Shown here one piece after another: positions 28,613-34,166 of a stretch of 44,064 bases of DNA (positions are counted from its first letter, which is position 1; each line of letters begins with the position of its first letter). The notes beneath the pieces are model-generated. The model was not told the DNA's origin. It saw only the letters and a list, made by a program, of their open reading frames with translations, and did no database searches. The DNA comes from Solirubrobacteraceae bacterium (GTDB lineage: Bacteria > Actinomycetota > Thermoleophilia > Solirubrobacterales > Solirubrobacteraceae). The position numbers and the translations under genes were made by a program. The stretch covers positions 1 through 44,064 of the forward strand of contig JAUYGN010000074.1 of NCBI GenBank assembly GCA_030690545.1, in the 5' to 3' direction.

Positions 28613-29083
28613 CTACCGGTCGTAGCGCGCGAGGTCGGCCTCCAGCCGCGCCTCGTCGGTGTCGCTGAGGCCATCGTCGGCGGGGGTGTCGCCGGCTCCG
28701 ATGCCGGCCGGCGAGCGACGGCGCCAGCGCGGCGCCAGCAGCACGAGCGTCGCGACGAGGATCGCCCCCAGCGCCAGCGGGATCGCGTATGCGGTCAGCC
28801 CGACGCCGCTGGTCTGCGGAGTCGCGAGCACATCGATGCCGTACTGCGCGACGAGCGCCTGCTTGATCTGCTCCTTGGTCTGACCCTCGGCGATCAGCTC
28901 GCGGATGAACGCCCGCTGGCTGTCGGGCTGCGCGCCCTCGGCGATGTTCAGCGGCACCCGGCAGGTCACGCACATCACCTCGTCCTCGATGTCGACGAGG
29001 TCGGTCTTCGGAGCGGCGGCCAGCGCGGCGGGCGCGAGCGCGGTCGCGATCAGCACTGCCGCGAGCGCGAGCGCGCGGGTCAC
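28613..29083 (-). CDS. ccmH: Cytochrome c maturation protein CcmH
   Basis: CcmH is a membrane thioredox protein that prepares apocytochrome for haem attachment. The 156-aa product has a signal/first helix, the outer Cys pair in EDEVMCVTCRVPLNIAEG, the three-helix segment FIRELIAEGQTKEQIKQALVAQYG, and a membrane helix (YAIPLALGAILVATLVLLAP) followed by an acidic cytoplasmic tail. The GTG (29081-29083) overlaps the ccmG stop by 4 nt. The usual LRCxxCQ pattern is here VMCVTCR. Confidence 0.92.
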   Translation of the reverse strand: MTRALALAAVLIATALAPAALAAAPKTDLVDIEDEVMCVTCRVPLNIAEGAQPDSQRAFIRELIAEGQTKEQIKQALVAQYGIDVLATPQTSGVGLTAYAIPLALGAILVATLVLLAPRWRRRSPAGIGAGDTPADDGLSDTDEARLEADLARYDR

Positions 29084-29622
29084 GACTGCGCCTTCGCCAG
29101 CGCGCGGTCGATGAAGGCCTGGTCGATCGGGCCCCGGAAGATCGAGACGATCCTGCCGCGGCGATCGATCACGAACGTCTCGGGCACGTAGGTCGTGCCG
29201 TAGCGCTTGGCGAGCTTCGTACCGATGTCGCGCAGGCTCGGGAAGCTGACGCCGTGGTCCTGGATGAACTTCAGCGACGCCGGCGCCGCGTCGTCGTACG
29301 TCACGCCGAGCACGGTGCCCTGCCCCGAGCTCGTCAGCTTCTTGTGGGCGCGCTCGAGGACCGGTGCCTCGGCCTTGCACGGCCCGCACCACGAGGCCCA
29401 GAAGTTCAGCACGACGATCTGACCGCGCAGGTCGGCGACCGATCGCGTGCCGCTCTCGCCGAGCACCGGCAGCGGGCTGCTCGGCGCGGGCGGGAAGTCG
29501 CCGCGCGCGATCGCCTGCTCGATCGAGTCGTCGGTCGCGCCCGACAGCAGCCCGTAGGCGAGCAGCCCGATCAGGCTCGCCGCAGCGAGGGTCGCGAGCG
29601 TCGGGACGAGGAGGCGCTTCAT
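29080..29622 (-). CDS. ccmG: Thioredoxin-like cytochrome c maturation protein CcmG/TlpA
   Basis: The 180-aa product has an N-terminal membrane anchor and an extracellular TlpA-type thioredoxin domain with active site [15 protein letters not shown] and the cis-Pro region [14 protein letters not shown]. It would reduce the disulfide of CcmH or of the apocytochrome. On the minus strand TAGGCT (29632-29637) lies 9 nt before the ATG, so the leader is minimal. It starts the ccmG-ccmH unit, separate from ccmE-ccmF on the other strand 1.6 kb away. Confidence 0.93.
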
Positions 29623-29716: not shown

Positions 29717-29789
29717 GCGGACGTAGCTCAGTTGGTAGAGCGCGAGCTTCCCAAGCTCGAGGTCGCGGGTTCGAGACCCGTCGTCCGCT
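29717..29789 (+). tRNA. tRNA-Gly (CCC)
   Basis: A 73-nt cloverleaf folds with a 7-bp acceptor stem (GCGGACG with CGTCCGC), D-arm GCTC/GAGC, anticodon stem CGAGC/GCTCG with loop TTCCCAA (anticodon CCC, reads GGG), and T-arm with TTCGAGA. No CCA is encoded. A -10 box TAGAAT (29699-29704) lies upstream. Confidence 0.95.
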
Positions 29790-31236: not shown

Positions 31237-31641
31237 GTGCCGCCCGCTCGCAAACGCAAGGTCCGCCTCGTCGCGGCGCTGTCCGCCGCCGTCGTGCTCG
31301 CCTGTGCGCTCGTCTACACGAGCCTGCTCGGCTCCAGCGAGGTCGTCACGCCGAGCGATCTGGTGACCGCCACGGCCGGCACGTCCTACCAGCTGACCGG
31401 CAAGGTCGTCAACGACTCGGTGCGTACGACCTCCGACGGCGTCGACTTCCGCGTCCGCGATCGCGATGGCTCGACATCGGTGCCGGTGACCTACAGCGGC
31501 GCCGTCCCGGACCCCTTCCGCGAGGATCGGGAGGTCATCATCACCGTGCGCAAGGAAGGCGCGACGTTCGTCGGCGAGCGCGACTCGCTCGTGACGAAGT
31601 GCCCGTCGAAGTTCACCGAAGACGCCACGCAACGCTCCTGA
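31237..31641 (+). CDS. ccmE: Haem chaperone CcmE, Cys-type variant
   Basis: CcmE carries haem covalently on the outer membrane face and passes it to CcmF. The 134-aa protein has one N-terminal helix (VRLVAALSAAVVLACALVYT), an OB-fold with YQLTGKVVND, FRVRDRDG and the family hallmark VPVTYSGAVPDPFRE, then the haem-attachment end. Instead of the usual HxxxY it reads CPSKF (Cys122, Phe126). The GTG at 31237 puts the basic N-terminus directly before the helix. ccmF starts 30 bp downstream. Confidence 0.88.
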   Translation: MPPARKRKVRLVAALSAAVVLACALVYTSLLGSSEVVTPSDLVTATAGTSYQLTGKVVNDSVRTTSDGVDFRVRDRDGSTSVPVTYSGAVPDPFREDREVIITVRKEGATFVGERDSLVTKCPSKFTEDATQRS

Positions 31642-31671: not shown

Positions 31672-33858
<2,187 letters not shown>

Positions 33859-33878: not shown

Positions 33879-34166
33879 GTGGACATCGTCGCCCTGCTCG
33901 TGATCATCGCCGCGCTCGGTGCCGTCGTGGTGCTCGTCAGCGCGCCGCTGCGCGGCGCGACCGGCGAGCGCGTGCGCAGCGAGTCGGCCGACGAGATCGC
34001 CGAGCTCGAAGCGCGCAAGGAGGCCAAGTACCGCGAGATCCGCGACGCGGAGATGGACCTGCGCACCGGCAAGCTCTCCGACGAGGACCATCGCGCGCTC
34101 GATCGCCAGCTGCGCGCCGAGGCCGTCGAGATCCTCAAGGCGCTCGACGAGGCCGGCGGCGGCTGA
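33879..34166 (+). CDS. CcmI-like small membrane protein
   Basis: The 95-aa product has one N-terminal helix (VDIVALLVIIAALGAVVVLV) and a cytoplasmic coiled-coil segment, EIAELEARKEAKYREIRDAE then MDLRTGKLSDEDH, which strongly resembles the N-terminal part of CcmI. The TPR domain of long CcmI proteins is absent. It probably assists haem ligation with CcmF. The GTG at 33879 starts 20 nt after the ccmF stop, and no clear ribosome site is seen. Confidence 0.75.
   Translation: MDIVALLVIIAALGAVVVLVSAPLRGATGERVRSESADEIAELEARKEAKYREIRDAEMDLRTGKLSDEDHRALDRQLRAEAVEILKALDEAGGG

What the first reader, a model, noticed from the sequence alone, without database searches (positions are those of the whole stretch)
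31237..31641. Cys-type CcmE with CxxxF, kept with CcmG and CcmH
The haem-binding HxxxY is replaced by CPSKF. CcmE with CxxxY is known from Desulfovibrio and some archaea, where CcmG and CcmH are absent; here both are encoded nearby and the Tyr is Phe as well. This is an uncommon combination.
Basis: partly seen in the sequence, partly recalled or inferred. Interest (0 to 1): 0.6.

Follow-up and report, generated by a model that had tools for sequence, protein, structure and literature searches.

The report
Cysteine-type haem chaperone CcmE (CPSKF)
This is an ordinary gene for a haem-carrying helper protein used to build cytochromes c; its odd-looking cysteine and phenylalanine are the usual form in this group of bacteria, and the combination was already noted in a 2011 review.

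Summary
ORF 31237-31641 (+) is a CcmE ending KCPSKF, with ccmG/ccmH on the other strand at 28613-29622, and ccmF plus a short CcmI-like ORF downstream. The genome has one PF03100 match only, so no second His-type ccmE was found. It also has ccmABC, a CcmD-like ORF and a CcdA/DsbD-like gene elsewhere: a full System I.

In the host's class (named relatives are Solirubrobacteraceae, Thermoleophilia) all 128 CcmE termini read, from 119 of 159 CcmE-positive genomes, are Cys-type; 62 end in Phe. CcmH is found in 138 of those 159 genomes. Across Actinomycetota, CxxxF recurs in other families. [quoted passage not shown]

Likely mechanism: Cys122 carries haem as in System I*; Phe126 removes the optional Tyr iron ligand. 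Side result: the CcmH thiol site differs strictly between His-type and Cys-type systems (30 of 30 versus 0 of 60 canonical), but phylogeny may explain it.

The parts
31237..31641 (+). ccmE, Cys-type haem chaperone, 134 aa (GTG start): one N-terminal TM helix, OB fold, flexible tail
   Evidence: PF03100 E 4.3e-14; profile match to 2kct, 8ce8_E, 1sr3; AF2 model pLDDT 83.7 with the five best Foldseek hits all CcmE
31600..31614 (+). CPSKF motif: Cys122 (31600-31602), presumed haem-attachment residue; Phe126 (31612-31614) at the Tyr134 (E. coli) position
   Evidence: alignments; Cys in all 128 class reads
31672..33858 (+). ccmF, haem lyase subunit, 728 aa
   Evidence: PF01578 1.4e-35, PF16327 3.1e-55; T. 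thermophilus CcmF 6zmq E 6e-89, WWD region aligned
33879..34166 (+). short CcmI-like ORF, 95 aa; named by position and by recalled resemblance to the CcmI N-terminus only
   Evidence: no Pfam/NCBIfam match above cut-off; a profile built from it hits 173 of the fetched loci
29080..29622 (-). ccmG (DsbE/ResA-type thiol-disulfide oxidoreductase, WCGPC)
   Evidence: sequence printed
28613..29083 (-). ccmH, thiol site EVM-CVTC-RVPLN
   Evidence: PF03918 1.7e-14; only CcmH of the genome; motif

Best explanation
A standard cytochrome c maturation System I with the Cys-type (System I*) CcmE, in a Solirubrobacteraceae-type actinobacterium. Shown: the gene set (CcmABC and a CcmD-like ORF on another contig; CcmE, F, G, H and a CcmI-like ORF in the window; a CcdA/DsbD-like protein; five CxxCH cytochrome domains as clients) and conservation of the haem-handling residues of CcmC. 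Inferred: CcmC presents haem at its WWD site, Cys122 of CcmE attacks a haem vinyl to give a thioether-linked holo-CcmE, CcmAB releases it, and CcmF with CcmH/CcmI takes the haem for the apocytochrome, whose thiols CcmG and CcdA keep reduced. Phe126 cannot give the tyrosinate iron ligand, so the iron is held by another ligand or water, perhaps with Phe stacking. This is a tolerated, repeatedly arisen variation, not a new mechanism.
For: Family and fold. Single CcmE. Full Ccm set. Clients. CcmC WWD and both P-His positions align with E. coli CcmC (7f02). Clade-wide Cys and recurrent F/Y; at least 8 F/Y changes on a CcmF tree of 178 genomes. Known kind: PMC3601427 section 8, which describes Desulfovibrio Cys-CcmE binding haem covalently; the same review says the E. 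[quoted passage not shown] M. acetivorans C120A loses haem on CcmE (PMC9084895 passages).
Against: I found no biochemical test for this clade. For D. vulgaris CcmE, PMC3884852 (passages) reports non-covalent ferric haem binding through the Cys, so covalent attachment is not certain. [quoted passage not shown] The CcmD-like match is weak (13.1 bits against a cut-off of 24) and the CcmI-like ORF matches no curated model.
Confidence: 0.88

Rival explanations
1. A functionally distinct Cys-type system: the Cys-type CcmE has co-evolved with a modified CcmH thiol site (M-CxxC, CxCGC or Cx7C), and CcmH takes over part of the haem hand-off, which frees the Tyr ligand so that Phe is allowed only where CcmH is kept.
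For: Of the CcmH sequences read, 30 of 30 from His-type genomes have CxxC followed by xxx[S/T/D][V/I/L], and 0 of 60 from Cys-type genomes do. In the 178-genome tree set, Cys-type Phe or Met is 68 with CcmH to 2 without, Tyr 40 to 37; one further Phe row was of unknown state and left out (naive Fisher 6e-11).
Against: Not independent: the tree holds only 4 CcmH changes and 2 Cys/His changes, and independent-pair tests give 0-1 informative pairs. G035 (96% complete) and G477 (94%) have Phe and no CcmH found even at E 10. His-type systems keep both CcmH and Tyr, so CcmH alone does not free the Tyr.
Confidence: 0.25
2. CcmE here is a degenerate or non-functional copy and a different, His-type CcmE serves the genome.
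For: None found beyond the altered motif.
Against: One PF03100 match only in the genome; the ORF is conserved at about 82% identity in the nearest relatives and sits before ccmF; OB fold predicted well.
Confidence: 0.02
3. The Cys is a redox thiol, working with CcmG/CcmH in thiol exchange, rather than the haem-attachment residue.
For: CcmG and CcmH with CxxC motifs are encoded nearby.
Against: The Cys is at the haem-His position of the family, and in M. acetivorans and D. desulfuricans it is needed for, or carries, haem (PMC9084895, PMC3601427). CcmH-less lineages keep the same Cys (14 of 14 reads in family f6).
Confidence: 0.05

Closest known systems
System I* CcmE (Cys-type CcmE; Desulfovibrio, archaea, Chloroflexi, Firmicutes)
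   Same: CPSK motif with Cys at the haem-His position; CcmE fold; D. vulgaris CcmE 2kct is the best sequence match in the PDB and among the best fold matches.
   Different: Phe instead of Tyr, and CcmG/CcmH are kept; Phe and CcmH retention are both mentioned for this group in PMC3601427.
Canonical His-type System I (E. coli, R. capsulatus; also 32 of the 72 motif reads outside the class)
   Same: Gene set CcmA-H, CcmI-like ORF, CcdA-like reductant, CxxCH clients.
   Different: Cys instead of His in CcmE; CcmH site EVM-CVTC-RVPLN instead of [R/K/A]CxxCxxx[S/T/D][V/I/L].
Archaeal streamlined CcmABCEF (Methanosarcina acetivorans)
   Same: Cys-type CcmE.
   Different: Archaeal systems lack CcmD/H/I and keep CxxxY (PMC9084895 passages); here CcmH is present and the residue is Phe.

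Membership tests
CcmE family (PF03100) | profile match over the curated cut-off | tested here: met
   53.1 bits against 24.6
CcmE family (PF03100) | N-terminal TM helix and OB-fold domain | tested here: met
   AF2 helix 3-32 plus strands, pLDDT 83.7; Foldseek's five best matches are CcmE chains
CcmE family (PF03100) | covalent haem on the conserved His or Cys | not testable with these tools
   needs haem stain of purified protein
System I* (Cys-type CcmE) | Cys in place of the haem-binding His | tested here: met
   Cys122
System I* (Cys-type CcmE) | CPSKY motif with Tyr (majority form, not obligatory) | tested here: not met
   Phe126; PMC3601427 counts F-for-Y cases within System I*, so it does not exclude membership
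System I* (Cys-type CcmE) | absence of CcmH and CcmG (original description) | tested here: not met
   CcmH and CcmG present; the 2011 review states absence of CcmH is not characteristic
Canonical System I | His in CcmE HxxxY | tested here: not met
   CPSKF, and no second CcmE
Canonical System I | CcmABC(D)EFGH and a CcdA/DsbD reductant | tested here: met
   CcmD only by a sub-threshold match

The most novel reading that the evidence does not exclude
In Actinomycetota the haem-attachment residue of CcmE and the thiol site of CcmH form matched sets: His-type CcmE with canonical [R/K/A]CxxCxxxS[V/I] CcmH, Cys-type with non-canonical CcmH (mostly M-CxxC-xxxL, else CxCGC or a spaced Cx7C). The pairing would reflect a different thiol step in releasing a thioether-bound haem, with the Tyr iron ligand dispensable there.
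Probability: 0.25. Interest if true: 0.5.

Novelty: new member of a known kind. Interest (0 to 1): 0.2.

Why it matters
It corrects a premise: Cys-type CcmE is not a marker of CcmH-less systems, and Phe at the iron-ligand position is common and recurrent in Actinomycetota. That supports the view that the Tyr ligand is dispensable. The sharp split in CcmH thiol sites between His-type and Cys-type systems gives a testable lead on how a thioether-held haem is released, an open question raised in PMC3601427.

Tried and rejected
A Phe-only-with-CcmH rule: striking in raw counts (68 to 2 against 40 to 37) but not independent on the tree (0-1 informative pairs), and G035 and G477 break it. G175, a same-genus genome lacking CcmH, is an assembly break: its ccmG is cut at the contig start. 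G175, G451 and G439 (the last two 66% and 64% complete) were set to unknown for the tree; one such row was in the tree set.

Coverage: motif reads cover 119 of 159 CcmE-positive class genomes and 70 of the 125 CcmE-positive genomes outside the class in the phylum sample (152 of 346 in all, 27 of them in the class). The rest were not read. In one search one duplicate row (L053) and one fragment without motif (G080) were dropped, 78 rows gave 72 motif reads, the other six being second domains without motif. CcmH sites were read in 90 genomes, a convenience set, not all CcmH-positive ones. Several fetches aimed at guessed contigs without a known hit (L037, L055, L056, L136-L138) gave nothing used.

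Other phyla were not surveyed: the one genome-contig scan kept 80 loci (of 163 relatives), nearly all titled as Thermoleophilia-type or plain actinobacterial MAGs. No paper found studies CcmE of this class: (one hit, a soil survey seen only in the listing). Allen 2006 and Goddard 2010 are known to me only through their citation in the papers read; Goddard 2010 is not held.

Full report
Observation. The GTG ORF at 31237-31641 (+) encodes 134 aa ending TKCPSKFTEDATQRS. It is a CcmE by Pfam (53.1 bits, cut-off 24.6) and by fold: an AlphaFold2 model from 19 sequences has pLDDT 83.7, and its best five PDB matches are the CcmE chains 8ce8_E, 1lm0, 1sr3, 2kct and 1j6q. The Cys of CPSKF aligns with the Cys of the D. 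vulgaris CcmE 2kct.

Surroundings. ccmH (28613-29083) and ccmG (29080-29622) overlap by four bases on the minus strand. ccmF (31672-33858) and a 95-aa CcmI-like ORF (33879-34166) follow ccmE on the plus strand. Elsewhere, contig C145 carries ccmA, ccmB, ccmC and a CcmD-like ORF, followed by a gene that reads like hemA (recalled resemblance only). The genome has one CcmH match, one DsbD/CcdA-type match, and five cytochrome c domains, each with a CxxCH. CcmC keeps the WWD motif and both periplasmic haem-ligand His positions in alignment with E. coli CcmC.

Who it is. The closest named relatives are Solirubrobacteraceae MAGs (about 77-84% identity), with Thermoleophilaceae and Patulibacter further out.

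Survey of the class. PF03100 is found in 159 of 199 genomes and PF03918 in 146 of 199. 138 genomes have both, 21 have CcmE only and 8 have CcmH only. The 21 are all 14 CcmE-positive genomes of family f6, three of f8, and four single genomes, one of them (G175) explained by a contig break. I read 128 CcmE motifs in 119 of the 159 genomes: all are Cys-type; 62 end in Phe, 60 in Tyr and 6 in Leu, the last being second copies in f8. In the window's family f1 the count is 16 Phe and 5 Tyr.

Survey of the phylum. PF03100 is in 152 of 346 genomes and PF03918 in 102 of 346. Outside the class I read 72 motifs in 70 genomes: HxxxY 32 (all with CcmH), CxxxY 25 (5 with CcmH, 20 without), CxxxF 14 (11 with, 3 without), CxxxM 1. 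CxxxF occurs there in families f12, f17, f18, f21, f45, f48 and f75. On a FastTree CcmF tree of 178 genomes the F/Y state changes at least 8 times, CcmH presence 4 times and Cys/His twice. So the Phe is a recurrent, tolerated replacement.

Does Phe track CcmH? Raw counts suggest so (68 to 2 for Phe or Met against 40 to 37 for Tyr; naive Fisher 6e-11), but pairs on branch-disjoint paths give only 0-1 informative contrasts, and two near-complete genomes (G035, G477) have Phe and no detectable CcmH. I do not claim the link.

CcmH thiol site. In 90 genomes read, CcmH from His-type genomes has CxxC followed by xxx[S/T/D][V/I/L] in 30 of 30. From Cys-type genomes this is 0 of 60: 40 have CxxC with another tail (31 of them Met-CxxC, including the window), 12 have a spaced Cys pair (SP[F/Y]-Cx7C) and 8 have CxCGC. 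The tail rule was written after seeing the sequences. This could be two inherited module types rather than functional matching, since Cys/His changes only twice on the tree.

Literature. PMC3601427 (FEBS J 2011; [quoted passage not shown] It also says that the E. [quoted passage not shown] PMC6204919 (passages) gives Phe in about 3% of CcmE and calls Tyr134 important though not essential. PMC9084895 (passages) shows Cys dependence in M. acetivorans. PMC3884852 (passages) reports non-covalent binding for D. vulgaris. PMC9616876 (passages) proposes a ligand switch to Tyr134 on release, which a Phe variant cannot use.

Verdict. True observation, ordinary meaning: a member of the Cys-type CcmE group in a full System I, usual for its clade and already described in kind. 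Interest is low; the CcmH thiol-site split is the one lead worth following.

Noticed in passing
L002, L003, L004, L007, L011, L013, L014 (family f8 genomes): Tandem second CcmE-like gene beside the CPSKY copy, in six genomes ending CPDKL or CPSKL (CxxxL) and in one CPSKY; the CxxxL copies have neither Tyr nor Phe.
   Followed up: partly
L175, L182, L185, L198, L193, L196, L205, L331-L333, L336, L337: CcmH homologues whose CxxC is replaced by a spaced Cys pair (SP[F/Y]-Cx7C), in families f12, f17, f45, f48.
   Followed up: partly
L063, L069, L076, L088, L092, L177, L334, L335: CcmH homologues with a CxCGC site, in families f8, f21, f54, f72.
   Followed up: partly
L180, L186, L189, L206, L192, L194: ORFs with two CcmE domains, one with CPSKY and one without any haem motif, in families f30, f44, f50; these genomes have no CcmH match.
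   Followed up: no
L145 (genome G509): A His-type CcmE (HDENY) in a family whose other members read are Cys-type; the genome has two CcmE matches and about 5% contamination, so it may be a contaminant contig.
   Followed up: no
window 29717-29789: tRNA-Gly (CCC) between the ccmG/ccmH pair and the ccmE operon.
   Followed up: no
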